Shown piece after piece: positions 9,098 to 64,000 of a stretch of 64,000 bases of DNA. Below the pieces are notes generated by a model. It saw only the letters and a list, made by a program, of their open reading frames with translations. It did no database searches and had not been told where the DNA came from. Both the position numbers and the translations under genes were made by a program. The stretch is taken from contig CM026570.1 in NCBI GenBank assembly GCA_015143295.1, positions 2,690,047-2,754,046 on the forward strand. The letters are read 5' to 3'. The stretch comes from Tetracentron sinense. Lineage: Eukaryota > Streptophyta > Magnoliopsida > Trochodendrales > Trochodendraceae. Position 1 is the stretch's first letter; each line of letters starts with the position of its first letter.

Positions 9098-9688
9098 TGT
9101 TGGGAAAAAACACACTTTTCTTCTTTTTTCTGTATGTAAATCAAGAATAAATTACTACAATAAAAGTAAATAAATTCAAGTACAAACACGTAATATTTTT
9201 AACATGAAAAACCTTTCAAGATGAAGGAAAAAACCACTGGACACTAGTCCAGGAAAAACTTTCACTATGTGAATAATAGGGTTACAAGTGACCACTCTAG
9301 ACACAACTAGAGTATACCAACATCAAGTGAAAGCAACACTTGGAATACAATGTTTCACTAAATAAAGTGAATGAACTAATGAAATAAGCCCACTTACCTC
9401 AAAAAGAAATGCAAGATGTAAGAGGATGATCTTTTCTTCTTCTTGTACCCAAGTTTCTCTTCTTTCCTTGAGGTAGCAAAATTCAGAATTTTTCTTCTCT
9501 CTTTTGAGAGGTTTTTCTCACAACACAAGTGTGAGTTCACAAGAGGAATTCCAAAAGGCCCTCACGATTTTAGCTTAAGGGAGCAATAGACAAAGCATTA
9601 ACTACAATCCTTTCCAAGAAAATGTTGTTGGAAGATTTTACAAGAAAAGGTGGTGGGTCCCACTCCTCATAAAGGAGGAAACCCAACA
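9098..9688 (-). repeat. 3' LTR of the Copia element
   Basis: 591 bp, starting TGTTGGGAAAAAACACAC and ending GAAACCCAACA on the plus strand. It pairs over its whole length with 13697-14288, with scattered substitutions. Confidence 0.9.
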
Positions 9689-9719
9689 AACTCTCCCTCC
9701 AATTTATGAAGAGAGTTCC

Positions 9720-12700
9720 ACTATGTTCATACCTGCAACTCTTCTACAAAACTCGAACTTATCTTTAGGAAGACTCTTTGTCATCACATCTGAGTCATTC
9801 TTCTCGATATAGATCTTTTCAAGGTGTAGAAACTTCTTTTCTAACACATCTCGAATCCAATGATGTCTTATCTCAATGTGTTTAGACTTGGAATGAAATT
9901 TGAATTCTTACTCAAGTGAATAGTACTCTGACTATCACAATGAATAACATGCCTACTTTGTTCCAAACCAAGTTCTTCCAAGAACCTCTTCATCTATAAC
10001 ATTTCCTTGCAAGCTTCTGTAGTTGCAATATACTCTGCTTTTGTGATAGACAAAGTCACACACTTTTGCAATTTAAACTGCCAAGATACAGCTTCTCCTG
10101 CAAAGGTAAGCAAATGCCCTGAAGTAGACTTCCTATGATCAAGGTCACCTGCCATGTTTGAATCTGTGAATCCCTCCAACTCAGGCTTAGACATCCCAAA
10201 GCACAAACACATTTTAGAAGTTCATATTAGATATCTAAGAATCCACTTAACTGCTTCTCAATGTTTCTTGCCTGGATTTGAAAGAAACCTACTTACAACT
10301 CTAACAGCGTATGTAATATTCGGCCTTGTGCAAACCATTGCATACATCAAACTTCCAACAACTAAAGCATATGGAACTCTTTCCATATAACTTCTCTCTT
10401 CTTCACTTGAAGGACTTTGCTTTTTACTCAGCTTGAAATGACTTGCAAGTGGAGTGCTAACTGGTTTAACATTCTTTATTTGGAATTTCTCAAGTACCCG
10501 CTCTATGTATCTTTCTTGTAATAGCCACAACTTCTTGGCTTCCTATCATGAGAGATCACCATGCCCAAAATTTGTTTTGTCATTCCTAAGTCTTTCATGT
10601 CAAAAGATTTGTTTAAGTTTTCTTTAACCTGTCAATCATGTTAGCATCTTTACCAACGGTCAACATATCATCAACATAAAGCAAGAGAATAATGAAGTCA
10701 CCATTAGAAAATCTTCTAAAGTAAACATAATAGTCCAAGTTTGATCTTTGATACTCATGATCCATTATAAATGAATCGAACTTGTTGTACCACTGTCTTA
10801 GTGCTTGTTTCAACACATAGAAGCTTTTATTTAACTTGTAAACCATGTGTTCTTTATCCTTGATTTCAAAACCTTGTGGTTGCTCCATGTATAGCTCTTC
10901 ATTCAAATCTTCATGAAGGAATGCGATCTTGACATCTAGTTGCTCAATTTCCAAATTCAAGTTTGCCGTCAAACCCAAAATAATCCGAATAGATGAGATT
11001 TTGACTACGGGAGAAAAAATCTCATCAAAGTCAATTCCCTTTTTCTACCCAAAGCATTTCACAACTAACCGTGCCTTATATCGCACTTTCTTTACATTGT
11101 CTTCATGCTTTACCTTGAAGACCCATTTGTTTTTCAAAGCTTTTCTTTATTTTGCTAGCTCAACAAGATCATAAGTATGGTTCTTATGCAATGAGTCAAT
11201 CTCATCTTGCATAGCTTACAACCACTCACCCTTGTGCACATCAACTTGAGCTTCTTGGAAACTTTCCGATTCACCTTCATTTATAACCATCACATACTCA
11301 TTTTGAGGATATCTACTTGAAGGTCTTCTCTCTCTAACAGATCTTCTTAATTGTGATTCAAATAGTTCTTTTTCATTAGAGTGTTGCTCTCCTTCTTCAA
11401 CATCATCTTGTTCATTCTCATTTTTAAGATGCTCTTCCCCACTATTTTCATTTTGCACTGGTGGAGGGATAAAAGTAGCTTCATTTGACTCATTTACAAT
11501 CTTTTGAGGCTCTTTTCTCTTCTCAAAATCTTCAATGGTTTGATCCTCTTAAAAGATCACATCTCTACTTCTATGTAACTTCTTATTTATCGGATCCCAC
11601 AATCGAGAACCAAATTCTGCATCACCATATCCCAAGAAGACACATGGTAAAGACTTGTAGTCTAGCTTGGAACGAAGCTCATTAGGAATATGCATAAAAG
11701 CTTTGCATCCAAACACCTTCAAATTGGAATATCAAATATCTTTTCCACTCCATAACTTTTCCGGAATTTGTCCTCCAAGTGGAACCGATGGAGAACGATT
11801 AATTAGATAACACGCGTTATGCATTGCTTCTCCCCAAAAGTGTTTTGGCAACTTTGCACATGCAAGCATACTTCTCATCCTTTCAACTATTATCCAGTTC
11901 ATTCTTTCCACTACCCCATTTTGTTGAGGAGTACGGGGAATGATTCTTTCATGTTGAATACCATGCATATCACAATAACTCTTGAACATCTTTGAAATGT
12001 ACTCTCACCCATTATCTGTACGAAGACACTTGAGAGTTTTACCACTTTCCCGTTCAACTATATCATGAAACACTTTAAAGATTTCAAACACTTCATCCTT
12101 GGATTTCATGGTATAAGACCACACTTTTCTAGATGCATCATCTATGAAGGTAACAAAGTAAGAAGCACCACCAAGAGATTTCACACTCATAGGACCACAC
12201 ACATCTGAGTGTACTAATTTTAAATTTTTAGATTTATGTTTATTACTACTTTGAAGAAATGAAACTCTATGTTGTTTACCGGCTAAGCAATGATCACAAG
12301 GTTCAATGGACGTACCTTTCATTCCGGTGATAAATTGCATTTTTGCCAAAACTTGAATGTCTTTCTCGCTCATGTGACCAAGCCTTCAATGCCATAAATT
12401 TGGTGATGAATCTTCCAAGGCAGTGTTCACTTCGCCCTTGAATAAGTGGGCCTTTATTTTGTAAAGAGTAGCTTTTTTCTCATCCCTTACCACGATGAGA
12501 GAACCCTTGGACAACTTTCATCTTCCTTTCCCAAAATGATTCTCATACCTTTCATCATCCAACTTTCCACATGAGATTAGATTCAATCAAAGAACTGGTA
12601 CATGTCTCACATCCTTCAAAACAAGCTTGTGACCCACATGTGTTTCAATGTGAATATCACCGATGCCAACAATTTTTGAAGCACCACTATTTTCTCATTT

Positions 12701-12980
12701 AACCATACCAAATTCACCGGAATTGTATGAAGAAAAGAAGTCTTCATTTGGTGTTGCATGATAAGAAGCACCAGTGTCAACAATCCATTCGAAATCATTA
12801 CATATGGCACCAAAACAATCTTCATCATATGTGGTGAGCACTTCATCATTGCCTTTTGTTGCAACCCCCATGGTTCCATTCTCTTTATCATTACCTTTTT
12901 CCTCTTTCATGTCTCTTTTGAATTTTCAACATTCTTTCTTCATATGCCCTTTTTTGTGATAATAATAACATTCAACATTA
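9720..12980 (-). pseudogene. Broken Copia pol (zinc knuckle, PR, IN, RT, RNase H)
   Basis: Read on the minus strand. A zinc knuckle near 12960 keeps CYYYHKKGHMKKEC, where the second Cys of CX2C has become Tyr. The protease motif DTGASYHATP lies near 12760. Integrase pieces (12373-12005 and 11989-11732) carry CDHCLAGKQH, DVCGPM, LRTDNG and QQNGVVERMN. Reverse transcriptase pieces (10978-10613 and 10530-10258) carry LDVKIAFLHEDL and LLLYVDDM. RNase H (10212-9994 and on to about 9730) carries AVSWQ, KAEYIA and HCDSQ. Fragment frames differ and in-frame stops separate them. All hallmarks of Copia pol are present, but no intact protein is encoded. Confidence 0.92.
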
Positions 12981-13089
12981 GTTCTTGATTTGGATCTCCA
13001 TTTGCTTTATCACGAAAGTGATCACCCCAATTCTTGGATCTTCCTCTTTCTTCACTAGCCAAAATTTGTTGATGAGAAGAACCCGATGC

Positions 13090-13647
13090 TTATCTTCTAA
13101 CCTCTTCATTCAATAAATTACTAGTGACATGACTCATAGAAACAACCCCATCCGGTGCCAAATTACTAAAAGAAACAACCATTGTCTCCCAACTTTCCAA
13201 TAATGAAAGAAGCAACAATAAAGCTTGCAATTCATCATCTAGCACCATCTTCATAGCTGCCAATTGATTGACAACGCTACGCATTTCATTCAAGTGTTCC
13301 GTAATTGATGTCCCTTCCTTGAATTTCAAGTTCACCAACTTCCTAATCAAGAAGGCTTTATTCCCGGCCATCCTTCTTTCATAAAGATCTTGTAATTTAT
13401 TCCATAATTCTTTTGCGGAGCTCTCATTTGACACATGGTGAAAGACAACATCATCCAACCATTGTCGAATATTTCCAAATATTGTTTTCTTATCCAACTT
13501 CTTCCAATTTTCATTTGACATGGATTCCGGCTTACTTTCAATACCCTCAATCGGAGCATACAAATCCTTACAATAAAGTAAGTCTTCCATCTTCGGTTTC
13601 CAAATTCCCCAATTTTTTCCATTTAAACTAATCATTCGAGTTTCCAT
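13090..13647 (-). pseudogene. Copia gag (UBN2/retrotran_gag type) fragment
   Basis: Open for 185 codons. It starts METRMISLNGKNWGIWKPKM and contains LWNKLQDLYERR, LIRKLVNLKFKEG and LNEMRSVVNQLAAM, typical of the Copia capsid domain. It ends before the zinc knuckle, which lies out of frame downstream. It begins 50 bp inside the 5' LTR, where a Copia gag should begin. Confidence 0.9.
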
Positions 13648-13696
13648 CTTAATTCACACACAAAAATAAACCCCAATAACCTTGCTCTAATACCAC

Positions 13697-14288
13697 TATT
13701 GGGAAAAACACACTTTTCCTCCTTTTTGTATATGTAAATCAAGAATAAATCACCACAATAAAAATAAATAAATTCAAGCATAAATACACAATATTTTTAA
13801 CATGGAAAACCCTCCAAGATTAAGGGAAAAACCATAGGACACTAGTTCAGGAAAAACTTCTACAATGTGAATAATTGGGTTACAAGTGACCACTCTAGAC
13901 ACCACTAGAGTATACCAACATCAAGTGAAAGCAACATTTGGAATACAATGCTTCACTAAATGAAGTGAATGACCTAATGAAATAACCCTACTTACCTCAA
14001 AAAAAAAAAATGCAAGATGTAACAGGATGATCTTCTCTTCTTCTTGTACCCAAGCTTCTCTTCTTCTTTCCTTGAGGTAGCAAAATTCAGTTTTCTTCTC
14101 TCTTTTGAGAGGTTTTTCTCACTACACAAATGTGAATTCACAAGAGGAATTCCAGAAGGCCCTCACGAGTTTGGCTTAAGGGAGCAGTAGACAAAGCATT
14201 AAGTACAATCCTTTCCAAGAAAGTGTTGTTGGAAGGTTTTATAAGAAAAGGTGACGGGTCCACTCCTCATAAAGGAGGAAACGCAACA
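13697..14288 (-). repeat. 5' LTR of the Copia element
   Basis: 592 bp partner of the LTR at 9098-9688. The terminal TG at its plus-strand left end has mutated to TA. An A-run near 14000 differs in length from the partner. Confidence 0.9.
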
Positions 14289-23100: not shown

Positions 23101-23337
23101 GGAAATGTACTTGACCAATTTAGGAGTTGTATAAAATCGGACACAGTAGAAGCTTTAGTTTGTTGTCAATATTGGAATTGTTCGAAGGATAGTAATTCAC
23201 TTGATAGATAATGTTAGGTCCACTTTCTTTTTCATTCACTCTCTCATTTTTTAAACAAGGGAAAAAAAGTGGTGGGCCCCACAAAAATTGTTATATTTTT
23301 TTTGCCTTCTTATTCGAAAAAAAAAGAGTGGACCTAG

Positions 23338-24089
23338 TGTTTGGGAAAAGGTGCTGCACGGAAGGGATTGCTATCAATGGGTATTCACAAGAAAATACGA
23401 CAAACACACAATACACAAGATATATAGTGGTTCACCCAATTCAGGGCTACGTCCACTCTAGAAACGGTCCAGATATACTTCTACAAATAAAAAAGAAGAT
23501 TACAAGAGAGAAGATAAACAAAAATACACACATTACCTTCCAAAAAAAATATATACACACACTAAGGACTCTACCACAACCCTTGAAAGACTCTCACACA
23601 ACCCACAATTCTTTGTTCACTCTCTCAACTCAAACCTGACCTAAACTCGAATATTTTTAGGACAAAGGAAACACAAAACCCGAACCCTTCAAAACCGAAC
23701 CAATACTCTCCACTATGAGAGCACACCGAGATAAAGCCGTGAGAACACTCTCCTCTCTTGAGAGCTAATAAGGGCTTTCCATGGGAGATCTCTCGTTCTC
23801 CATGGAAGCTCAACCCACACCTCACATCTTGCTTTCTCTCTCTCTTAAGGTTCTTCAATAAGCCTCCACCCTAGGTTTATTTATAGCCACTAAACAATCT
23901 CACTCTAATTAGGACTTTCTCAAAACTCATCTCCATGAAAGAAGCAATTTCCTATTTCAAAATAGGAGTCTTCAAAACGGAACTCAAAATCCAGCCGTCT
24001 AAAACGTGTCGGCTACCAATCGATTGGCCATGCTTGGCCGATCGATCGCCCATGTTGGGTTTGCTCTAATTCGAGCCAAAAACCCCACA
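23338..24089 (-). mobile_element. Solo LTR, 752 bp, TSD CCTAG
   Basis: Begins TGTTTGGGAAAAGG and ends ACCCCACA on the plus strand, with the perfect 5-bp repeat CCTAG at 23333-23337 and 24090-24094. A minus-strand TATAAATA at 23878-23885 suggests minus orientation. Palindromes CCAATCGATTGG (24016-24027) and CGATCGATCG (24039-24048) lie upstream of that TATA box. No internal region or partner LTR is nearby, so it is best read as a solo LTR left by LTR-LTR recombination. The open frame at 23211-23639 overlapping it is not a gene. Confidence 0.88.
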
Positions 24090-24094
24090 CCTAG

Positions 24095-31865: not shown

Positions 31866-32971
31866 GTATCTGTTCTTGTCTTAGTTCATCGATTTCAGGT
31901 TTAGTGTTTTTTCTCCGGTTTCTTTATATATAATCATTAATGTGAAGAAATGTAGCGTGCCTTTTTCTGCTCTGATAGCCGGATCTGGTCGGGTTCCTTG
32001 TTAATCTGTGTTGTCGTTGTTTTTTGGGAGATTTGGTTCAAATCAGTTTGTTCTGGAAGTTTGGTAGAAATGCTTACAGATCTGAATATTAATGCGGATT
32101 TTATTCTGTGATGTGAGTTAGTGATTTGTTTTTTCAGGAGATCTCGATGCATGAATTGAGGTTTTGAGGAATTTTGTTTCAGAGATTCATATATCTTGTA
32201 ATAATGTTGATTTGTTTTTTTTCCGCGCAAACTTTTCATTTGAAGATATACCTGGATTTTGAACTCACTATAGAATTTTCTGTTCAAAAAATCAGTTAAT
32301 TTTTCTATCTCAAGTAATTTCCTCGGGTGTTTGAGTTGGTACTTTTGCTTGTTTTCAGGATCTAGATTTCTTCTAGAGTCTATCTGACTTCGTTGCTAGA
32401 CGGCGAGCCATAGAGTTTAAGTATTTTTCCGTCATTTTGTTGTTCTACCTTCGATTATTGTCACTAGTTGCCAGAAACCCAAATTAAGATTTCAGATCTG
32501 TTATTTCTCGAACTCGGAAGAAGGAAGAATCTTGAGCTTTCGTGCGGATAATATTTTTTTCATGTTTTTTGTCAGCTTGGTTTTTCCGGATTAGTTTTGA
32601 TAGTCTGGACTCCGAAGAATTATTCCTTCTAAGTTCTTTCCTGCTCATGGTCTCCTTTTATCCTTATCAAATCCATCTCTCCTTCGAAAGCTTATCTTTC
32701 CTAGTGTTCTACTCTTTGATCGCTTTGTTTGCTTGTTTCAGAGGTAGTAGTTAATCTTCCTTGGAGTCCTGTTGTTTCCATATTTCACATACCTGTGTTC
32801 TTCCTAATAGATCTCTGTTTTTATGCGTTGATCGATTCTGCTAGAATCCCGTCTGCTCCTGAAGACCAAGATATTTTTTGGCTTGGATTCTTTAACTGCT
32901 AGATCTGTGAGTTTGGTGGCTGGATAGAAGTGAACGTAATATCTTTGCAGGATTCCATTTCGGATTCGTTA

Positions 32972-34160
32972 GAGCATCTCCAACCGGAGTCTCCATTTTG
33001 GAGACTCAAAATACTATTATTTACTGAAAAAGTGTGTTTAGAGCCTTTCCCTATTTGAAGCAACACCAACCATGGGTCTCTATATCTATCTCTATCACTA
33101 TTCAACAAATAAGACTTTATTTAAACAAAATTTATATCTCACATATATTTACTAATTTTCCTTCAAAAACACGAGTTTATATGGTAAAACTTAATCATTC
33201 CCCCCACTTTTGTCCAAAATTCAATCATTTTATCCAAAATTTCCCTCCAACCTTTCTTCTATAAAATCCAACACATTATTGTTTTAACGGTATCATCGAT
33301 ATCATTAAATATATTTAATATATATTTAATATTGGTCTCATTTTAACGATATCGTTGATAGTACCAATTTTATAAAAATCAGATTTATATATTGAAAGTT
33401 ATACTAATTTTATGAAAGTAGGGCGAAAAATGTAAAAGGATACAGTTGGTATATAATTTAAAATAGATATGTGAACAAGGGTAAAGTTGATATTCTACCT
33501 AAATGAATAGTGTTAGAGACAGATTTTGGAGCCCCACTTGGGTCTCCAAATTTGGAGACGCAAAATCGTTTCATCAAAATAGAGCCCGCTTTAGAAGCTC
33601 ATCTCCAACCGGGTTCTAAAAACACAAATTAGAGCCCCAACTCCCTCCAACCGGGCTCTATTTTGATGAAACGATTTTGGGTCTCCAAATTTGGAGATAA
33701 GTGGGGGCTCCAAAATCTAGTCTCCAACACTATTCATTTATGTAGAATACCAACTTTATCCTTATTCACATATCTATTTTAAATTATATATCAATTGTAT
33801 CATTTTATACTTTTCGTCCTACTTTCATAAAATTAGTATAGCTTTCAATATATAAATCTGATTTTTATAAAATTGGTACCGGTGGAAAGATATCGACGAT
33901 ATCGTTAAAATGAGACCAATATTTAACATATTTTTTTTAAAAAAAGTTTTACAATATTAACTCATGTGTTTTTGAAGGAAAATTAGTAAATATATGTGAG
34001 ATATAAATTTTTTTTAAATAAAATCTTATTTGTTGAATAGTGATAGAAATAGAGACCCATGATTGAAGTTGCTTCAAATAGGGAGAGGCTCTAAACACAC
34101 TTTTTCAATAGACAATAGTATTTTGAGTCTTCAAGATGGAAACTCTGGTTGGAGATGCTC
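32972..34160. mobile_element. 1.2-kb inverted-repeat (PIF/Harbinger-like) element in the SAMS leader intron
   Basis: Termini GAGCATCTCCAACC and GGTTGGAGATGCTC are perfect complements flanked by TTA on both sides. About 550 bp of the left half (for example AGTGTGTTTAGAGCCT, ACCCATGGGTCTC-like and CAACAAATAAGA) is mirrored in the right half. A second internal CATCTCCAACCGGG near 33602 suggests two fused or nested copies. No transposase is visible. Confidence 0.85.
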
Positions 34161-34224
34161 TTACAATCTTTTATCCACAAAGTGTGAAACCAAATCTAGC
34201 CTTATTTCTTTTGGACTTTGCTAC

Positions 34225-51297: not shown

Positions 51298-51302
51298 GGA
51301 TG

Positions 51303-52784
51303 TGAAAAATCAATCCGGTGAACCTCAAATCTAAGGTTTGAGTTGAGAACTCACAAATTCAAGGGGATAGCTAGGCCTCCCTACAAGTCTATCTACTCTT
51401 TTTAATATTTAACAATTAAGTTATTAATTAAGGAATGATGTACTTTAAAGTGCGGAATAGGGGGAAACAAGCAAACCACAACACAAGCAATTTTTACGTG
51501 AAAACTCTTCCGGGAAAAACCACCGGACCTAGTCCAGCAATGAGATTCACTAAGACAAAGTCAACGAGAACTTAAATACTCGAACTTGACTCCTTCGAAC
51601 TCGTCATTACGATCCTTCAGTTCTTAGTCTTCCACGCCTCGAAAAGTCATCATGTACTCACAAGTCCCGTGATCAACCGCAGTGGCTCATACTTCTCTTA
51701 GATCTCCAAAACAACCACGATCTTCTGATCGATCTCCGTCAATAACAGTTTTGGATTCCACGAACCAAATCACACATCCACGATCCTTCTCGGATCGATC
51801 TCATTCGCAAAGGCTCTGAAACACTCCGATCAAGTAATTCTTTCCAGAACAGATTGATGGTTTGATTAAAATCAAATCCTATATGGACTCTATCAATGAG
51901 AAAGTCCAAGCAAGCAAGAATGGAGCAATAACTTGCAAAAATTAGGATGAAAGAGAAACTAATAAAGGGAGGAGAGAAAAATAAATCCTGGAGTTTCTAT
52001 GAACTCTAGAGATGCCCCAAAGTACTCTCTACACACTCTCAAAGACTATTTTTCGAACTAGAAGGGTTCTAGTTAAATAGAAAAATCAAAACCAAGGTTT
52101 AGAAGTTGCTAAAAACCAAGGAGGAAACAAATCCCATATCAGGGTCGACCCTGGGAGTCACTTGGGTCGACCCAACAATGCACTTCGGTCGACCCAAGCG
52201 TCTTCCAGGGTCGACCTCGGATTTTTTCACTCTCTGCCTTTTTTCACCATACAATTTTTTGGAGACTCAGGGTCGACCCAAAGTGGTCAGGGTCGACCTT
52301 GAGGTATAAAATCAATTTCAAAAACTCATTTTTAGCTCTTGCATCCTTGACAAAAGTTGTAGATCTTTTCGACGTGGTCGATTTGATATATTATGGAGCA
52401 AAATCCGAACGACGGTTTGGAAGATATGCCTCTTACAAGCAGCCTTAGTTTTTTAAGAACTTTAACATTCTTTAACTTATTTTGGGCTTACATATCTAGT
52501 CACCTAAGGTTCATATGATTAGTCTAAGTCAATTTCCACTTAAAGTATCATATTATGATTGTTCTAAGTCAATTCTCACTTGAGATAACATGGTATCTAG
52601 GTCACTTACCATCCTATGAGTAAAACGAAGGATATGAACTAAATGCCTTCAACCGAGTCTTCAACCGATCTTCTTCGGTCTTCATCTTCATTTGTTGTGG
52701 ATGCTTGAAGGCAATGACCCAAGATACACTAGACTCACTTGTTTTAACACCGGAATAAGCCAACACAAAAACATGGACTTTACA
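51303..52784 (-). repeat. 3' LTR of the gag-only element
   Basis: 1482 bp, TGAAAAATCAATCC to GGACTTTACA on the plus strand. It aligns end to end with 56471-57954, with modest divergence. Confidence 0.93.
52144..52297 (-). promoter_or_regulatory. Phased GTCGAC palindrome array in the LTR
   Basis: GTCGAC starts at 52144, 52166, 52188 and 52210 (spacing exactly 22 bp), then at 52272 and 52292. A TATA-like TATTTAA on the minus strand lies at 52073-52079, so the array is upstream of the presumed LTR promoter. The partner LTR has the same array. Confidence 0.7.
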
Positions 52785-54634
52785 ATCTCCCCCGTTGGCA
52801 ATTCCGTGACAAAATCAAACTGAAATACATGACTTGACACAAACTCAGCCAAACACATCAAACGGTGAATTAGGACATTACATGACTCCAACACAATTAC
52901 ATTATAGCAATTGACAAATAAACTTAAATGAAGACACTGAAGCTCTTGTCAAGAAAAATCTGTCTGCTGCAACCCTGCACATGCTCATAAACAAAATACC
53001 CAGTGAAGCATGTATAGAATATAAAAATACATAAACACAAGTATTGCAAGGAATGTACTGAACTTGGGAACTTATACGCAACATTCTCCCACTTTTTGAC
53101 ACAATTACCAAAGGTAGTCATGAAGTCAATATCACAAAGAATATATCAATTTAACATCATGTGAAATATCAAGGCAGTCACAATACAACCAATCTAATGC
53201 AGATAATGCGGAGACTTAAAAGCGGGGAACAAAATAGCAATATAAAGCACAAACTCCCCCTCAACAACTCAACTTGATCTTCTCGCCCTAAGATCAAGGA
53301 CACCACCAAAATCAGGGCTCTATGCTAGAAAGGTCCATACCAACTAATAACGAAACACATAATACTAATGCTAAAAAGGTATCATGTGTCACACAAACAT
53401 GCATCAAAAACATTTCAAGCAATAGTAATTTAAAATTACAACCCCAATGAAGAACATGATTAGTTAGTCCGACTGAAGATATACATCTAACTAAATCTCA
53501 CGGAATGCTAAAGCATAGCCAATTCACTTAGTCACATTTAGTGAACAGTTCAAAAGTGAAGCAATATGTATGTAGTGGTGGTCTGACTAGATACTAGATC
53601 AATTTCTTTCCCTTTCCAAGGATATGACATTAATCATTAAGGGGACTCCCGGAGATACAATATTTTAGAAGTCAAACCTAATTAGATCCAAATATGCTGA
53701 TTTTTTACATTTTGGTGCTCATTTATCTATTTTATTTGACTAAATATTTTTCTTTTACTTTTGGTCAAATACTTCCACCATTTGTAAGATTTCTTTTGAT
53801 GTTCTTTATCTGAACATATCTTATCATGCAATTATGACTTTGACACATCCAGGTAGGTAGTCCTGGCTATTGGCAACAGGGGCTTTCACTCTAGTAACCC
53901 AGATAGATAACTACTATTCGCATAAGTAGCCATTACATACTATTTGCATCCAATAGTGACTTTCACACTAGCCCAGTAGGTAGTCTTTTTCATTGCAACA
54001 ATTTTTGCTCATGGAGGATACACAAAATGGGGATGATTAACAATATGGCCATTCTAGATTGGTCATCCAATGTCACACTTTTGGGATAAGTCAAACACCT
54101 ACAGATTGAGAGTTAGACCTCTCAACAGAATCAGTCAGAGTGCATGTGAAAGTGCAAAACATACACACATGAATAAGTCTTTAACTGTACAAGATAAAAT
54201 CAGTCTAATTTTCAGCCTAACCAAGAGATTATGAAGGTGATATATCCTCAATCAGCGACAAGTATAGAAATAAAGACCACACAAGGAATGCAAACATGCA
54301 AGTCAACAAGAGCAACATGACAAAAATATTTTTGGATTTTATGATTTTTCAGTGTTTTTGAGATTTTTCAAAATAAATAAAACAGAAAAACAGACCAAAG
54401 CAAATAAAAACTAGTAAAAAGAAAAATTATTAGTATATACAAACATCACAGCACTAGGACAAGATAGAACACTAACAGCACACCCTAGGCTATGACAGGC
54501 ATGGGCTAAGTAAAGCCTTTCAGGTCTTCCTTTCTCACCCAAACGGTTTTAGCAGTTTGATTGACCATTTTGTCTCTAACCATTTCAGTTGAGGTAGGTA
54601 TGACATTTTGTCTCTTCCTCCTATTTCTCATTTT

Positions 54635-55892
54635 CTAGGATTGAGTCCTAGAATTATGGCAAGCATTATGGTTCTCCCCATTACATCCGTTATATCTAGC
54701 ATAAGGAGTGTCATGGCTATGCCACTGTCTAGAGTTGTGAGCAATTTTCATCACATCTTCACACAAACTCCTAGACTTCTCCATTAGGACCTCAACTCTC
54801 CTTTGAAGATTTCCATTAAAATTATTGTGGTTCTCAAAACCATGATTGGGCATTCTTCGAAGTATAGGACATCAAGGCTTAATATAACCCTTCACTCCAT
54901 ATTTATGACATGTAGGAATGAATTTCTGAGTTGAAGGGTCCTTCCAATTTTCAGGAGGGTGCCTTTTAGTACCAGGCTCAGTGTTCGAGGTAGATGGAGT
55001 TCTTTTCACATCTCCACACTTCTGAATTTGCTCAATATCAGTCAACTTGAGTTCAAGACTTGTCTTTTCATCAAGACAAACATGCAAATCAGATTCAAGA
55101 AGCTGAGTCTTGACAAGGAGGGAACTCTTCTCTTTCTCAAGCTGTGACACAAGAGCTTTCAACCTTGAAGCCACTTGGTCTAAGGCATCTCTTTCCATTT
55201 CAATAGATTTGACCTTTTTGGTCATGAAAAATTGGACATTTTTCAGCTTTAGGCATTCCTAAAATAACTCATCATAGGCTGCCTCAAGGTCTCCTACAGA
55301 ATCTGAGTCATTCTGACTTTCTTCATCCTCACCATCACTATGGTGTTGGTTACTCACAACATTTGAAGAAGATTCTTCAATCCCAGATAAGGATGCAGTG
55401 AAGGCCACTTAACCCCTAGTCTTCTCACAAGAAGAACTATTTAATTCCTCAGATTCAGATTCACTGTCATCTTGCCTTGCCCTTAAATATTTTCTTATTA
55501 GAGCACTCAACGACAATATGGCCGTAGCCTTGGCATTCATAGCATTGAACACTTTGGGATTTACTATCTGCACTTTTAAGATGTTTCTTATTTTCAAAGT
55601 GCTTGGACTTGGGTATCTCAAATTTTTTTTGTCCTTTCGGATTAAATCTCTTATTAAATTTCTTTACAAATAAAGCCAACTCTTCATCATCATCCTCAAA
55701 GTCTTTATCTGAACCATCTATGGATTCATTGACGGATTTCAAGACAACAGATTTTGGTTTCTTAGAAGAGTTCAAATTTAACTCATAGGTTTTGAGAGAT
55801 TCAACCAACTCTTCAATTTTGAAAGCATCAACATTTTTGCTCCATTCGATGGCAGTAACCTTTGATCGAAATATCTCAGGTAGAGATCTCAA
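54635..55892 (-). pseudogene. Gag remnant with zinc knuckles and coiled coil
   Basis: Three minus-strand pieces. 55892-55467 encodes the gag tail LPEIFRSKVTAIEWSKN through an acidic segment to the zinc knuckle CYECQGYGHIVVEC. 55225-54872 encodes a heptad-rich segment (VASRLKALVSQLEKEKSSLL) ending in a second, degenerate knuckle (CHKYGVKGYIKP). 54853-54635 continues it. In-frame stops separate the pieces. It resembles Copia gag proteins with a long coiled-coil extension. Confidence 0.8.
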
Positions 55893-56470
55893 AAAATTTC
55901 TAACAATTTTATACTCAAGAATTTTTTTCCCCTATATTGAAACTAGAATTGACAATGTCACTTAGATTAGTATAAAAATTGTCAAAAGTTTCATTATCAT
56001 CCATCATCAACTTTTCAAACTTAGAGGTAAGCATTTGAAGTTTGGAGATCTTGACAATTGTAGTCCCTTCATGGGTAATTTGAAGAATGTCTCATGCCTC
56101 ATTCGAAGTGTCACATTTAGAAATACGCCGAAATTTTTTGAATATAACATAAGCGAAGATTGCATTTAGACCCTTACTGTTCCATCTACAACTTTCAAGA
56201 TCTACATTGGTCCATTCAGAAGAAGGTTTAGGAATAGTCTGGTCATCTATGGTCTTTGTTGGATGGGTCCAACCTTGTTCAATGAAGATCTATACTCTCT
56301 CAGCTACTGATTTTAGAAACGCTCTCATTCAAGCTTTTCAATAGGCATAATTATTCTCATCAAATAATGGGGGACAAGAGATGGATCTTCCCTCTTTTCG
56401 GAGATTCATATTCACAGAATATAAGAATGAGATTGCACTAAAAAATTAGTGAACCCGCTTTGATACCAAT

Positions 56471-57954
56471 TGAAAAATCAATCCAGTGAACCTCAAATCT
56501 AAGGTTTGAGTTATGAACTCACAAATTCAAGGGGATGGTTAGGTCTCTATACAAGTCTATCTACCTTTTTTAATATTTAACAATTAAGTTATTAATTAAA
56601 GGATGATGTATTTTAAAGTAAGGAATAGAGGAAACAAGCAAACCACAACACAAGCAATTTTTACAGGGAAACCCTTCTTGGAAAAACCACCAGACCTAGT
56701 CCAGCAATGAGAATCACTAAGACAAAGTCAACAAGAACTTATAAGACTCGAACTTGACTCATTCGGACTCGACACTACAATCCTTCATTTCTTAGTCTTC
56801 CACGCCTCGAAAAGTCATCACGTACTCACAAGTCTCGTAATTAACCGCAGCCGCTCGTACTTCTCTTAGATCTCCAAAACAACCACGATCTTCCAATCGA
56901 TCTTCGTCAATGATGGTTTCGGATTCCACCGACCAAATCACACATTCACGATCCTTCTCGGATTGATCTCCTTCAAAAAGGCACCGGAACACTCCGGCCA
57001 AGTAGTTCTTTCCAAAACGAGTTGATGGTTTGATTAAAATCAAATCTTAGATGGACTCCATCAATAGAAAAGTCCAAGCAAGCAAGAATTGAGCAATGAC
57101 TTGCAAAAACTAGGATGAAAGAGAAACTAATAAAGGGAGGAGAGAAAAATAAATCTCAGAGTTTCTATGAACTCTAGAGATACCCCAAAGTACTCTCTAC
57201 ACACTCCCCAAAGTCTATTTTTCAAACTAGAAGGGTTCTAGTTAAATAGAGAAATCAAAACCAAGGTTTAGAAGTTGCTAAAAAACAAAGAGAAAACAAA
57301 TCCCATATCAGGGTCAACCTTGGGAGTCACTTGGGTCGACCCAACATTGCACTTCGGTCGACCCAAACGTCTTCCAGGGTCGACCTTGGATTTTTTCACT
57401 CTCTGCCTTTTTTTCACCATACAATTTTTTGGAGACTTAGGGTCGACCCAAAGTGGTCAGGGTCAATCTTGAGGTATAAACCCGTTTTCAAAAACCTATT
57501 TTTAGCTCTTGCATCCTTCACGAAAGTTGTAAATCTTTTCAACGCGGTCGATTTGATATATTATAAAGTAAAATCTAAGCAACGGTTTGGGAGATATGCC
57601 TTTTACAAGCAACCTTAGTTTTTTAAGAACTTTAACAACCTTTAACTTATTTTGGACTTACATATCTAGTCACCTAGGGTCCATATAATTAGTCTAAGTC
57701 AATTTCCACCTAAAGTATCATATTATGATTATTCTAAGTCAATTCTCACCTGAGGTAACATGGTATCTAGGTCACTTACCATCCTATGAGTGAAATGAAG
57801 GATATGAGCGAAATGCCTTCAATCGAGTCTTCAACCAATCTTCTTCGGTCTTCATCTTCATTTGTCGTGGATGCTTGAAGGTAATGACTCAAGATACACT
57901 AGACTCACTTGTTTTGACACTGAAATAAGCCAACACAAAAACATGGACTTTACA
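56471..57954 (-). repeat. 5' LTR of the gag-only element
   Basis: 1484 bp partner of 51303-52784. Its palindrome array is at 57313 (decayed to GTCAAC), 57335, 57357, 57379 and 57442, with the same 22-bp spacing. Confidence 0.93.
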
Positions 57955-58173
57955 GGATGGATACTCTTAATGTTGGTGAACTCTCTGTGAGTTAATACCA
58001 TAAGAGATCCTACGTCTTTCTATATACTCAAATTGATGCACTCACGGAAACCTTTTAGTTCATTAGGGGTTGCACATGTTGCCTAATACTTTGCAACATG
58101 TACACACTTGCACTCAACCCAATTTAGTGAAGTATGAACTACCAACTGTGAAGTGGGAACTGCCAGGAATTTG

Positions 58174-58460
58174 TCTCATGCTCTTAGCTCATAGAATATA
58201 TTCACGAAGCCGCCCTTTTCACTCACCTGCGAATTCTTCTCATGCTCTTAGCTCGTAGAATATATTCATGAAGCTGCATTTAGCTCGTAGAATATCTTAA
58301 TGAAGCTGCCCTTTTCACTCATCTACAAATTCATCTCATGCTCTTAGCTTGTAGAATATATTCACGAAGCTGACCTTTTCACTCACCTACAAATATATCT
58401 AATGCTCTTAGCTCGTAGAATATATTAACGAAGTTTCCCTTTTCACTTACTTGCAACGGC
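58174..58460. repeat. Minisatellite, period about 64 bp
   Basis: Four to five units with core CTCATGCTCTTAGCTCGTAG, AATATATTCACGAAGC and CCCTTTTCACTCACCT. One unit has an internal 32-bp partial duplication. Confidence 0.88.
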
Positions 58461-59354
58461 ATAGAATCTCTCCAACTAGGAAAACTATAAACATGATGAA
58501 CCTACCCCAAAAGGCTAGAATATCTCTTCATTTTATACTTCAATCAAACGAGTAATACCACTCTTACCTTAGGTGCGTAATTGTCTTTTGACCAAGTATC
58601 CATCTGTATCACATTCTCTTTTTGTATTTTTCCCCCTTACTCAATGTCTTCACAAAGAAGGCTGTTGGTTAATTAGTTCAAACAGCTTGCACACGATGAT
58701 CACAAAATCAAATTCAACTAAGAGGCACGATAAACGCTTCTTGAAGATAGTTGGAGCCTCCCGTTTGTGCAAGGGATTAAAGCAACTCTATCCCCGGAAT
58801 TCAACCTAGCCAGGAATCGATCTGTTCCTCTACAAATCTGCACTATCTGGCAGGAACTGTACTTAAACCTCTATTTAGGATGCCCACAAATTGTTATTCC
58901 AGTTAGGGTCTGAGTTATCACTTTACAAGGATAGCAATTAGTTACACAGATTGTATAAACCGGATTAGGCTATCACAAGTGATTGCCAAACAAAATTACT
59001 CTCTAGGAACGATTCTGAAACAGTTCCAGAATTGCATCTGTATGGATTCTGTAAACTAGATTCTGAGAATTCTATAATCAATTCTAAAGAGACACATTGT
59101 TTGGAAACAGATTGTTTACAGGCTCTGTTTGGTAACAATGCCCTAAGGTCAATGTATTACTACACTAGCCAAGTTCTCCTTCTGTTCTCTGTTCTTGGTA
59201 AATCCGGATAGTGTTTTGTTTGGTTACAAAGCGATCTCAATTTACCAGACTAATAGTCAGATCACTTCTCTGTTTGGCGACAGAGAATGAATTGGTCCAA
59301 ATGGACTGGTTGAATACGTGATCTGGCTTACTGGGTTGAGTCGTCTTCAACCTT
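58461..59354. other. Probable Copia LTR lower part
   Basis: No gene. The sequence probably runs into the 3' LTR of the Copia element at 60345-64000, but without its partner LTR the left boundary cannot be placed. Confidence 0.4.
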
Positions 59355-59880
59355 GAGATGGGCTTCAAATCTCCAATAGATTTCTGGACTTTCTTTCTCT
59401 GGTTCGGCCTCTCTCTTTCTGGTCTCAATCTCACAGAGGTTTGATATGATTTTCAACTTCTGTATAATCCTCCTATTCATCCTCACCTTATATAGGCGAG
59501 GGCTAGGCCTTGGGAGCCACTTGAGCTTCCTAACCAACACACTCACTGAGTCTCTTGGGTTTCCCCAACTGACCCATTCAATAGCCCACCAAGTTCAATG
59601 AACCTAGACACACATCAATGATCCGTTCAGATCTCCAATGGAGTTCTGGAGCTTTCTTCTCTGGTTTGGGCTCTCTCTTTCTGGGTTCAATCTCGCAGAG
59701 GTCTGATACAATTTTCAACTTCTGGAAAATCCTCCTCTTCATCTTCACCTTATATAGGCGAGGGCTAGGCCTTGGGAGCCACTTGGGCTTCCTAACCAAC
59801 TCACTCACTGAGTCTCTTGGGTTTCCCCAACTGACCCATTCAATAGCCCACCAAGCTCAATGAATCTGGACACACACCCA
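59355..59880 (-). repeat. 262-bp tandem duplication carrying two TATA boxes
   Basis: Two units, with CTCCAAT at 59371 and 59633, about 90% alike by eye. Each contains CTCGCCTATATAAGG on the minus strand (near 59490 and 59750). They lie in the presumed LTR of the Copia element, so the LTR promoter appears duplicated. Confidence 0.8.
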
Positions 59881-61886
59881 TGATCCGTAACGGATCACAA
59901 AATCCAAACCACCATCTCAATCCTGATCAAATCTATACCGTTCATCTGACTTCTATTCTTAAAAAGAATAGGCAACTCAAGTGACTCGCGAAGTGCAAAG
60001 TGCGCCTCATAGCGCTCATTGCTCCTGCACTTGCGCGTGTCGCTATCGGTGCGATACACCTCGCTAGTGCACCCACACTTGGTGTGTGAGCACACACAAA
60101 GAACAATCTCTAAGGAGAGGAGATTACTTATTAATTGGTTTCAACTCTCATTAATTTCCTATGTGGGACTAATACAAGCCACAAAAGTTTTCTTTTGAAA
60201 ACATGGTTTTTTCTTCCCAAAACCACTAGTGTAAAAACACCATTTTAAATCCAACCAAATGTTTTTCTTTCAAATCATTAAAGTTCAACTTTTATTTTAT
60301 TAAAATCAATTAAAAAATCTGTTTTTAATAAATCGAAATCGACAAACCCCCACTTGATTTATAAAAACATTATTTTAAATTATTATAGGATAGGCATCCT
60401 AGAAAGTCCTGTGCATAAATAAAAGTACCTTTAGGATTTGAACTTTTACTTAGTGTAAACTAATCAAAGTTAATCCGAGAACGTAGTGGACGTACCTTGA
60501 ACTAATGGACCCATATGGAAAAACCGGACTCGTCGCACACACACTTCTTTCAGAGATAAATTGTACACATTAGTTATACACTTTTGAGTCTGTGCCACAT
60601 CCCAGTTTATTATGCGCTCTAGAAATTACCTATAATCTCGTAAGAAGTGACTACCTTCCACACACAGAAAGGTGAGCCATCAAGAGCGTCTCTATACTCA
60701 CTCCGACATGAATAAGTCCATGGACTCATTAAGAGAATTATTATAAAATTCTCAACCTCAACAAAATATAAGAGATCATTTGTAAGATAAACATTTACAA
60801 GAAATTTCACTACTACATCATAGGAATGGACATGCCTCATTTTCATTAAAATGTAGTGCATACAAATAAATAAGACCATAGCTTGTTTCTCTCTTTGAAC
60901 TTGAGAAACTCATCAAGTAGGGTTTCCACTATATCTTATATCATTACAGGTTCTTCAGTCTCATTCCCTTCAATGTCGATGAAATCAATCTCTTCCAAGG
61001 CCCTTGGATAAAGGATCTGGCAAATTTTCTTTGGACTTAATATATTGAATGGCCACAGCGCCATCACCAATTAGACCCCTTACATGTTGATGCTTTAGAC
61101 GTATCTGTCTGGACTTCTCATTATAATTCACATTGTATGCCTTAAGCATAGCAGCCTGATTATCACAATAGATTGTAATTGCCAGCACTGGCTTGCTTCA
61201 TACTGGTACGTCTATGTCGCGACCCAAAATACCCCCTAAGAGTTAAGGATACTTTAGTCATGACTGCCGCATCATACCCTCCAGTATGATACATAAGGCA
61301 TACATACCATCCTATCAAAGTATATTATACACATAGCAGAAAACAAGCGGAAGCGCAATTTAATAACACTCCTATCGATAGGTTCAAATCTGAACTAACA
61401 GAACACCTATCCAAAATATGAAGCATGTAGTGGACAAGCCCCACTCTCAATACTTATCAAAATACAAGTATACTCTCTCTCCCTCTCAACAGAAATCAAA
61501 ATCGGGCCGCCTATCCAGCGATCCACCGTCCTGGTAGTGGTCCATAGAGGGCTCCGGATCATAGTATTCTTCCTCTATCCAAGGCTCCGTGCCACAGACA
61601 TCGAAAGGAACATGTGCACCTGCCGAAGTCAATAGTCGGCTGAGCATGGAATACCCAATGTCTACAAACTACTAAAGCTAGCAAGCCATAACAGAAATTG
61701 TAACATACTTTCAAGTCAAGTAAAGCGAGTAATTAAAACCAAATACGACTAAGCCAACATACTTCAAAATCGTAGAGCTGAAACCACGATACTTTTCAAA
61801 CCATATACTGTGCAAGCTTTTCAAAACATATTTCTAAACAAGGCTTTACAAGCATGACTTTGAGACATTCTATACAAGCAAAGTGT

Positions 61887-62100
61887 TTTCCTTCTCGGAA
61901 CACCTTGGAGACGAGTTCATACTTTACAAGCTTTCAAAGTGATTCCCTTCTCGGAACACCTTAGAGACGAGTTCAAAACTTATCAAAGTGATTCCCTTCT
62001 CGGAACACCTTAGAGACGAGTTCATACTTTACAAGCTTTCAAAGTGCTTCCCTTCTCGGAACACCTTAGAGACGAGTTCATTTCTTTCATTGAGCAAGCT
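61887..62100. repeat. Four tandem units of 49-56 bp in the solo LTR
   Basis: CTTCTCGGAACACCTTAGAG recurs at 61891, 61947, 61996 and 62052, joined by GACGAGTTCATACTTTACAA. Confidence 0.9.
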
Positions 62101-62900
62101 TTGAGACTTTGAGCCAAGTACAATACTTTGAGCACAATACATAGAAATCAAAACCAAATATCGAGCAAAACCTCTTTCCGAAACAAAGTACAATTTAAAA
62201 CTTCTTTTCAAAACCCAAATCATTCACTAAGCAAAAACCCTTTTTCTTCCATCCTTTTGATTGAACAAAACCCAACATACAAGTGCAAGTGATCAATTGT
62301 GTACAAGATTTGAACAAGAACTCTAAATATAACTTATCTTAATCATAGTTTATCAATAACAAATCCAAGACCTTGATTTCCTAAGGAAATCCTCCCAAAA
62401 CTTGAAACCTAGCACAAAACATAACTATACTAAGTTTAGTAGAGTGTATTTACCTCAAAAGGAAGTTTTTTACACTTCTATGGAACAAGAATCAAGCTTG
62501 AAGAAACATGGTTGAAGCTTTGAGAAGCCTGAACCTTAATTGGAAAAACAAACCAAAAACCCCCTTTTTGATTTTAGAATTTGAGAATCACCTTGGGTAG
62601 AAAACCCAAGCTTTAAAACACTAAAATAGCAAAGTATAAACCTTAGAAGCAAGGATTGAGGTTTACTTTGGGCCGAAAAGAACGGTTTGAGAAATCAACG
62701 TGTTCTTCTTCTTCTTCTCTTCTTCAATCCCTCAAAAATCCAAGCTTAGGATTTGAATAGATCAATCCCACGAATTCAGATCTTATTTATAGTTCTAAGA
62801 TTGCCAAAACCCCTAAAAGTCCTTGAAAATATCTCAAAATATATCAAAATATCTTCCCAAGGTCGGTTGGCAAAGTTATGAGTCGTTCTGCGCCTGAAAT

Positions 62901-62994
62901 CGTCGACGAGTGGTCTCCAGTCGTCGACGAGTGGGTTTCAATCGTCGACGAGTGAGTTATTTTTGCATTCTGGTGGGTTGACTCATCGACGAGT
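62901..62994 (-). promoter_or_regulatory. Phased GTCGAC array upstream of the solo LTR TATA box
   Basis: CGTCGACGAGTG starts at 62901, 62922 and 62943 (spacing exactly 21 bp), with a related ATCGACGAGT near 62985. It lies 110-200 bp upstream, on the minus strand, of TATAAATA at 62784-62791. Confidence 0.7.
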
Positions 62995-64000
62995 CCAAGG
63001 CACTCGGCGTCGAGTGGAACCCACAACTTTTTGAGTTTTTTCCCGCTTTATTATTTTGGTCATACCTTTTGACTCGCTTATCCGATTTTGACGATTCAAC
63101 TTGCGTTGGATTCTTCTTCGAAAAGGCTACAACTTTTATGTTTTACAAATTTTATAATTCTTCTATATTCATGGACTAAATTTCCCTTGAAGCTAACTGA
63201 TCCGAAAATGATTTTCAGCAGCCCAGATTTTCAACAGACTCGCTTCCGGAAATCTGACGTTTGACCCAATCTCGACTCAAAATCTGAAAAAGTAATAAAC
63301 ATGAACCTTGAAGAGGGTTTCAATACCTTTTTAAAAATTCAAGAATCACTCGATTCCGATCCGTGCTGAGAATTCTAGAGCTCTTTAAAGTTGAGGGTAT
63401 GTTAGGCATCCCTTTCTTTGACACTTGGAGTATGTTATACTCTCATTTTTCATTTGTCCCTAACCCCCCAAAACAATTTCCATATATATTTTGATTCATG
63501 TAAAACTTCATTTCATTTTAAAACATGAACCCACAATTTCATTAGGGCTTTAAGTCTTGAAGGCACTATTCACAGCACTATTCACATGAATAGTGAACCT
63601 AAATTCCGGGGCTCTACAGTCTACCAATACATTTTTGAGTCACTCAGCTTCCTCTCCTGTAGATGAGAGTGTTATAAACTCAGATTCCATTGTAAAATGA
63701 GTTATACAAGTCTGCTTCTTGGATTTCCATGAAATGACACCTCCTCCCAGAATATAAATTCAAGTAGTCACCGAGGTAGATTCATCTTGTTCTGAATTCC
63801 ACGTCGCATCGCTGTATCCTACGAAAACAGCGGGAAAACTCTCATAATGCAACCCGTAATACATGGTATCCTTTACATACTTTAAAACTCTGTGAAGAGT
63901 GTCTCAATGCACTTGAGAAGGGTTGCTAGTATATATTCTCAATTTTCCTACTGCATAGGCTATGTCAAGCCTGGTGCAGTGCATGGCGTATATAAGACTG

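What the first reader, a model, noticed from the sequence alone, without database searches (positions are those of the whole stretch)
52144..62994. Helically phased CpG-centred palindromes upstream of TATA boxes in unrelated LTRs
In the gag-only element's LTRs, GTCGAC recurs four times at exactly 22 bp (52144, 52166, 52188, 52210), with two more nearby. The partner LTR repeats this at 57313, 57335, 57357 and 57379. The unrelated 2.4-kb solo LTR has CGTCGACGAGTG three times at exactly 21 bp (62901, 62922, 62943). All sit about 65-160 bp upstream of a minus-strand TATA-like box. A third LTR (23338-24089) has CCAATCGATTGG and CGATCGATCG about 130-165 bp upstream of its TATAAATA. Two turns of DNA separate the sites, so they face one side of the helix. 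This could be an enhancer for a dimeric factor or a target or sensor of CG methylation. The one lost site (GTCAAC) fits methyl-CpG decay. I know of no named description of this architecture.
Basis: partly seen in the sequence, partly recalled or inferred. Interest (0 to 1): 0.75.

Follow-up and report, generated by a model that had tools for sequence, protein, structure and literature searches.

The report
Palindrome boxes in plant retrotransposon promoters
Several unrelated families of plant jumping genes carry rows of short mirror-image DNA sites, about two turns of the helix apart, just upstream of a likely promoter; such boxes were described in 2010 for one group of these elements, and here they also turn up in a second major group and in a miniature element, which hints at a shared kind of switch.

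Summary
The sequence observation is confirmed. The three LTRs are of different kinds: a gag-only, Sirevirus-like copia element (A), a solo LTR of a Ty3/gypsy chromovirus (B) and a solo LTR of a TRIM-like element (C).

Beyond that report: (1) boxes in a chromovirus and a TRIM-like LTR, although 2010 called them Sirevirus-specific; (2) a genome-wide preference for 19-22 bp spacing (GTCGAC pairs: 11,635 at 19-22 bp, 1,407 at 7-18, 1,558 at 23-38; ATCGAT: 31,343 at 19-22, 6,688 at 23-38); (3) dyad-symmetric covariation of the arms; (4) homologous gypsy LTRs whose array is replaced by a non-homologous one at the same place; (5) conserved cores among fast-changing spacers.

Against a strict helical rule: exact 21/22-bp spacing is not invariant, a three-turn mode shows for GTCGAC but not ATCGAT, 49-50-bp gaps recur, and my sample fits 10.0 bp better than 10.5. 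Best explanation: cis-regulatory sites for a dimeric DNA-binding factor. No factor, expression, methylation or small-RNA data were available.

The parts
51303..52784 (-). 3' LTR of the gag-only Sirevirus-like element A; target duplication GGATG at 51298-51302 and 57955-57959
   Evidence: LTR pair 90.7% identical over 1,485 bp; ends and duplication
56471..57954 (-). 5' LTR of element A
52144..52297 (-). Palindrome array of the 3' LTR: six GTCGAC cores (52144, 52166, 52188, 52210, 52272, 52292), LTR positions 488-641
57313..57467 (-). Palindrome array of the 5' LTR: four intact cores (57335, 57357, 57379, 57442) and two decayed (GTCAAC at 57313, GTCAAT at the sixth place)
52073..52080 (-). TATA-like box CTATTTAA, 63 bp downstream of the last core in sense direction (3' LTR)
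   Evidence: mean column identity 0.95, only 75th percentile of the LTR's 8-mers
56457..56470 (-). Primer site: CA/ATTGG/TATCAAAGC junction, one base from the published Sirevirus junction
52785..52794 (-). Polypurine tract and attachment site CGGGGGAG-AT/TG, one base from the published Sirevirus AGGGGGAG-AT/TG
55467..55931 (-). gag fragment with CCHC knuckle
   Evidence: Pfam copia gag 18.8 bits (cut-off 27) and zf-CCHC 19.1 (cut-off 20.8), both below cut-off
61215..63618 (-). Solo LTR B of a Ty3/gypsy chromovirus, duplication GTCTA at 61210-61214 and 63619-63623
   Evidence: related full copy L122
62900..63016 (-). Palindrome array of LTR B: three GTCGAC cores 21 bp apart (62902, 62923, 62944) and two variant boxes starting at 62983 and 63004
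62784..62791 (-). TATA-like box TATAAATA of LTR B
   Evidence: position kept in copies
23338..24089 (-). Solo LTR C of a TRIM-like element, duplication CCTAG at 23333-23337 and 24090-24094
   Evidence: strand taken from the TATA-like box, not tested otherwise
24016..24048 (-). Two ATCGAT-centred palindromes with centres 22 bp apart
23878..23885 (-). TATA-like box TATAAATA of LTR C

Best explanation
The arrays are cis-regulatory boxes of the LTR promoter: the same kind of thing as the published Sirevirus RM boxes, but more widespread. Each box is a dyad of roughly 16 bp around an RTCGAY core (GTCGAC or ATCGAT). Two to seven boxes lie about two helical turns apart, some 60-130 bp upstream of a TATA box, so that dimers of a nuclear DNA-binding protein could sit side by side on roughly one face of the DNA and raise transcription of the element. 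Spacers turn over quickly; core, symmetry and approximate spacing are kept. Shown here: anatomy, genome-wide spacing preference, dyad covariation, core-versus-spacer conservation, nearness to TATA-like boxes, occurrence in copia-, gypsy- and TRIM-like LTRs. Inferred: protein binding, dimer, activation. The factor is unknown.
For: Spacing: GTCGAC pairs 2,909 per bp of spacing at 19-22 bp against 117 at 7-18 and 97 at 23-38; ATCGAT 7,836 against 418 at 23-38. Family A, 30 rows: non-CpG divergence 6.7% in cores, 22.4% in array spacers, 8.4% in the rest of the LTR; CpG kept in 133 of 169 core cells against 800 of 1,226 elsewhere (p=0.002). Within 17 arrays, identity between units is 0.73 at the four bases next to the hexamer and 0.40 further out. 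Arms covary symmetrically at 88 sites from 24 sources, arms 1-5; on an overlapping earlier set of 48 sites only arms 2, 4 and 6 were significant. Homologous chromovirus LTRs carry non-homologous arrays at the same place. TATAWA lies 20-130 bp beyond the array in 16 of 26 stretches, background 0.29.
Against: No binding, expression or transcription-start data. Ten of 26 stretches have no TATAWA there. Phase is loose: gaps of 19-22 bp all occur, recurrent 49-50-bp gaps in L272 and L273, no 30-32-bp mode for ATCGAT (9 of 50 listed), and neighbour gaps in my sample fit a 10.0-bp period (R 0.79) better than 10.5 (0.66) (loci were partly picked by spacing). The control CAGCTG is itself enriched at 19-22 bp (146 per bp against about 30), unexplained. 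Spacer divergence may be inflated by misalignment. Many loci are related, so p values are optimistic.
Confidence: 0.6

Rival explanations
1. The arrays act through RNA. Palindromic transcripts fold into hairpins that feed small-RNA production and silencing; the regular spacing is a by-product of tandem growth.
For: All 17 arrays folded are more stable than shuffles (z -2.65 to -8.36), which palindromes give by construction. In maize the Sirevirus palindromes are small-RNA hot spots (passages in PMC5311732 and PMC10760457).
Against: On the sense strand G.T mismatches in the arms do not exceed A.C: 18 against 30 (14 LTRs), 39 against 54 (A copies), 5 against 15 (B copies, p=0.04 in the opposite direction). 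A box upstream of the TATA box would be transcribed only from the 3' LTR or from another promoter. Small-RNA hot spots do not by themselves explain why elements keep the boxes.
Confidence: 0.2
2. Ordinary minisatellites: tandem growth by slippage in a tolerant part of the LTR, without function.
For: Unit number varies between copies (three, four or five 21-bp units in family B). One 2-bp to 20-bp class of gap changes occurs in family A.
Against: Units share the core and little else (0.73 against 0.40); spacers diverge while cores do not; arms covary symmetrically; the same RTCGAY core recurs in unrelated LTRs with non-homologous spacers. Simple slippage predicts core and spacer to diverge alike.
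Confidence: 0.12
3. The arrays are targets or sensors of CG methylation.
For: Every intact core has a central CpG; 24 of 180 family-A cells are the simple CpG transitions GTCAAC or GTTGAC.
Against: Core CpGs are kept more often than other LTR CpGs (0.79 against 0.65). Another CpG-centred palindrome, ACCGGT, gives 2,778 pairs at 19-22 bp against a control of 1,425, and a good part of the listed ones overlap GTCGAC arrays. A pure CG sensor would not need dyad arms.
Confidence: 0.08

Closest known systems
Sirevirus repeated-motif (RM) boxes, Bousios et al. 2010, PMC2829016 (seen: outline and abstract, sections 9 and 19 whole, parts 1 and 3 of 3 of section 4, search passages)
   Same: Palindromic, CpG-bearing, repeated boxes in the upper half of the LTR, upstream of a TATA box; flanks diverge while boxes stay; Vitis RM is CGGTCGACCG and Tnd-1 RM is ACAATCGATTGT.
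   Different: The paper studied Ty1/copia only and calls the RM Sirevirus-specific; here boxes also sit in a Ty3/gypsy chromovirus and a TRIM-like LTR. Array A lacks the CGG-CCG signature and has six exact cores, not eight or more. Helical spacing, arm covariation and array replacement do not appear in the parts of the text that I saw.
Maize Sirevirus palindromes as small-RNA hot spots, Bousios et al. 2016 (not held; known from passages in PMC5311732 and PMC10760457)
   Same: Palindrome-rich, fast-evolving cis-region of Sirevirus LTRs.
   Different: Maize families with a different palindrome (CACCGGAC...GTCCGGTG); no small-RNA data here.
Repeated activator boxes in the U3 of plant LTRs such as Tnt1 and Tto1 (recalled; Tnt1 box I is mentioned in PMC2829016)
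   Same: Repeated boxes upstream of the LTR promoter.
   Different: Other motifs and families; not compared by sequence here.

Membership tests
Sirevirus (element A) | 5' LTR/internal junction CA/ATTGG/TATCAGAGC | tested here: met
   CA/ATTGG/TATCAAAGC, one base different
Sirevirus (element A) | Terminal PPT AGGGGGAG followed by AT/TG | tested here: met
   CGGGGGAG-AT/TG, one base different; related LTRs L108, L118, L121 have the exact 12-mer
Sirevirus (element A) | Several identical PPT copies upstream of the 3' LTR | tested here: inconclusive
   One exact copy (53254) and two with one mismatch (53086, 53282) within 0.5 kb; one-mismatch matches also occur elsewhere (24 on that strand of the 64-kb window)
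Sirevirus (element A) | Reverse transcriptase in the Sirevirus clade | not tested
   No pol open frame seen in the element; no tree of an autonomous partner was made
Sirevirus RM boxes (array A) | Palindromic boxes in the upper half of the LTR, upstream of TATA | tested here: met
   LTR positions 488-641 of 1,482, TATA-like box at 705
Sirevirus RM boxes (array A) | At least eight copies with a CGG-CCG signature | tested here: not met
   Six exact cores, arms mostly GGG...CCC; CGGTCGACCG occurs in other arrays of the genome
Sirevirus RM boxes (array A) | Boxes form the LTR's CpG island | tested here: inconclusive
   CpG observed/expected 1.06-1.11 at LTR 301-600, but 1.28-1.41 at LTR 901-1300, away from the array
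Sirevirus RM boxes (arrays B and C) | Carried by a Sirevirus | tested here: not met
   B is gypsy, C is TRIM-like; they work like RM boxes at most, they are not members as defined in 2010
Ty3/gypsy chromovirus (LTR B) | gypsy-type pol and C-terminal chromodomain | tested here: met
   In related full copy L122: RVT_1 76.2 bits, RNase H 51.6, Chromo 25.3 (cut-off 25.1); integrase core below cut-off. The Tekay/Del label is recalled, no tree made
TRIM (LTR C) | Two LTRs flanking a very short non-coding interior | tested here: met
   Among 40 scored places, four same-strand pairs 961-982 bp apart and one of 865 bp, leaving about 0.2 kb inside. Interior not read; a 752-bp LTR is long for a TRIM (recalled)

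The most novel reading that the evidence does not exclude
One nuclear factor, or one family of factors, reads RTCGAY dyads about two turns apart in copia, gypsy and TRIM-like LTRs alike. The array is a plug-in promoter module that unrelated retrotransposons have acquired or re-evolved, replacing its sequence again and again while keeping core, symmetry and approximate helical face.
Probability: 0.35. Interest if true: 0.75.

Novelty: new variant of a known kind. Interest (0 to 1): 0.55.

Why it matters
If the boxes are sites for one class of host factor, that factor would be a common on-switch for many of this plant's retrotransposons, and tens of thousands of mapped box pairs would make it directly testable by DAP-seq and reporter assays. 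It would also extend a feature described as Sirevirus-specific to a second superfamily, which points to convergence or exchange of modules rather than inheritance within one lineage.

Tried and rejected
RNA stem as the selected form: tested by G.T against A.C mismatch counts, no support. Kept as a rival because of the published small-RNA link.

Strict fixed phase: rejected in strict form. The 30-32-bp mode of GTCGAC pairs (35 of the first 50 listed) did not repeat with ATCGAT (9 of 50).

Any CpG palindrome: ACCGGT pairs are only about twofold over control.

W-boxes from CpG decay: 23 GGTCAACC/GGTTGACC against 110 GGTCGACC in family-A rows. These contain TTGACC (W-box, recalled). Noted, not pursued.

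Paper searches: (GTCGACGAG) listed 30 of 205 papers, none about retrotransposon LTRs by title; two searches found none; I saw listings, and passages of four papers.
Full report
WHAT IS THERE. The motifs are at the stated places, except that 57313 is the decayed GTCAAC. Element A is an insertion on the minus strand with LTRs 51303-52784 and 56471-57954 (90.7% identical), a 5-bp target duplication GGATG, a primer junction CA/ATTGG/TATCAAAGC and a PPT/attachment site CGGGGGAG-AT/TG. The solo LTR B is 61215-63618 with duplication GTCTA; LTR C is 23338-24089 with duplication CCTAG. The host genome has 1.16 Gb; that it is a plant is inferred from its elements, and the species was not identified.

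THE THREE LTRs ARE DIFFERENT KINDS. A resembles Sireviruses by its junctions; its gag fragment matches copia gag and the CCHC knuckle only below the curated cut-offs, and no pol was available for a tree. A full copy of family B (L122) encodes reverse transcriptase, RNase H and a C-terminal chromodomain, so B is a Ty3/gypsy chromovirus. Family C occurs as same-strand pairs of its 752-bp repeat, four 961-982 bp apart and one 865 bp apart among 40 scored places: TRIM-like. The two C palindromes have centres 22 bp apart. Of 20 other C copies, 11 read exactly CCGATCGATCGG at the first palindrome, and 19 have no indel between the two; the window's CCAATCGATTGG looks like a CpG-decay variant (counts by eye from its alignment).

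COPIES CHOSEN BY FLANK. To avoid choosing copies by the array, LTR sequence next to it was the query. Only the 40 best places of about 2,400 (A) and 4,000 (B) first-look candidates are scored, so these are the copies nearest the window. Family A: 30 loci; one (L057) shows no array at the anchor. With the two window LTRs and without two duplicate rows, 30 rows were aligned. Gaps in sense order are 20 (23 of 30 rows), 62 (19), 22 (26), 22 (19) and 22 (14), the rest mostly 18-21 or 59-63, some from missing or misaligned sites. Family B: 39 stretches plus the window; 21-21-21-41-21 in 16 of 40, 21-21-41-21 in 7, the rest variants.

CONSERVATION. Family A, non-CpG columns: divergence 6.7% in cores (46 columns), 22.4% in array spacers (110), 8.4% in the rest of the LTR (1,204). 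CpG is kept in 133 of 169 core cells (six sites) against 800 of 1,226 elsewhere (43 sites) (Mann-Whitney by site p=0.002). Misalignment may inflate the spacer value. Of 180 core cells 119 are GTCGAC, 24 are GTCAAC or GTTGAC, 9 are GTCGAT and 11 are gaps. No such core-versus-rest test was made for family B; its array CpGs range from 0.23 to 0.90 kept.

GENOME-WIDE. GTCGAC triples, spacings 14-44 bp: 3,636 against 34 for CAGCTG. Pairs: 7-18 bp 1,407 (control 393; most listed ones are one tandem repeat with 18-bp pairs), 19-22 bp 11,635 (control 584), 23-38 bp 1,558 (control 471). Of the first 50 listed 23-38-bp pairs, 35 are at 30-32 bp, 7 at 23-26, 4 at 33-38, and 4 contain an inner site. ATCGAT: 31,343 at 19-22 bp (control 420) and 6,688 at 23-38 bp (control 1,877); of the first 50 listed there, 9 are at 30-32 bp and 10 at 23 bp. 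ACCGGT at 19-22 bp: 2,778 against 1,425. Listings cover only the start of contig C1. The enrichment of CAGCTG itself at 19-22 bp (146 per bp against about 30) is unexplained.

DYAD SYMMETRY. At 88 sites from 24 sources the arms are symmetric above shuffles at arm positions 1-5 and not at 6-10, although arm bases vary freely (arm 2: A 11, G 26, T 25, C 26). An earlier, overlapping set of 48 sites gave significance only at arms 2, 4 and 6. The sites are partly related. On the sense strand G.T mismatches do not exceed A.C (18/30, 39/54, 5/15). All 17 arrays fold more stably than shuffles.

ARRAY REPLACEMENT. In five chromovirus-like LTRs (L150, L147, L117, L116, L119) homology to LTR B ends at its position 587-605, just before the array, and the arrays that follow did not align to B's: B 21 bp, L150 30, L147 31, L117 19-20, L116 19-20, L119 20-21. 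Homology resumes beyond the array in L150 and L147 only. L274 shares the same block and has an ATCGAT pair 21 bp apart. L111 and L112 gave only very short matches to LTR B. Against a simple phase rule, L272 and L273 hold recurrent 49-50-bp gaps, and neighbour gaps in the sample fit 10.0 bp (R 0.79) better than 10.5 (0.66). These stretches were picked by me from the listings for array diversity.

PROMOTER POSITION. TATAWA lies 20-130 bp beyond the array in 16 of 26 stretches (background 0.29, p=6e-4) and TATAAAT in 8 of 26 (background 0.06). The four ATCGAT stretches have TATAAAT at 59-63 bp. Ten of 26 have no TATAWA there. The TATA-like box of A is only moderately conserved (75th percentile of 8-mers). 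No transcript data were available.

LITERATURE. Bousios et al. 2010 describe Sirevirus RM boxes: palindromic, repeated, forming CpG islands, shortly upstream of TATA, absent from the other Ty1/copia elements examined; Table 3 lists CGGTCGACCG and ACAATCGATTGT (part 2 of section 4 was seen only in passages and in section 9). Passages of PMC5311732 and PMC10760457 say that the maize palindromes are small-RNA hot spots; the 2016 paper behind that is not held. I found no description of such boxes in gypsy LTRs or of helical spacing in searches; these cover open-licence papers only, and mostly listings were seen.

VERDICT. The feature is real and of a known kind. New here are its reach across superfamilies and the spacing, symmetry and turnover evidence. 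Most likely it is a cis-regulatory array for a dimeric factor (0.6), with small-RNA production as a side effect or rival (0.2). Interest 0.55.

Noticed in passing
L118:787-823 and L119:814-850: A 37-bp stretch of the array is 94.6% identical between a Sirevirus-type LTR (L118, exact Sirevirus PPT junction) and a chromovirus-type LTR (L119), spacer included: possible exchange of array pieces between superfamilies.
   Followed up: no
52144-52297, copies L040-L068: CpG decay of GGTCGACC gives GGTCAACC/GGTTGACC, which contain TTGACC (W-box, recalled): 23 against 110 intact in family-A rows, so ageing LTRs may gain WRKY-type sites.
   Followed up: partly
whole genome G000: The control hexamer CAGCTG is itself enriched in pairs at 19-22 bp (584, or 146 per bp, against about 30 per bp at other spacings); a further palindrome array family is possible.
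   Followed up: no
52140-52216: Spacers of array A are partly palindromic too, so the array matches its own reverse complement at about 80% over 77 bp.
   Followed up: partly
G000:C1:14917402-14918691 and G000:C1:20044294-20045916: A tandem repeat of about 123 bp carrying GTCGAC pairs 18 bp apart.
   Followed up: no
9100-14288: Another direct-repeat pair (9100-9688 and 13699-14288, 90% identical) with a primer-site-like GCTCTAATACCA at 13684: probably a further LTR element on the minus strand.
   Followed up: no
33361-33879: Long inverted repeat, arms 231 bp, 88% complementary, 57 bp apart, with a second inverted pair around it at 32968-34164.
   Followed up: no
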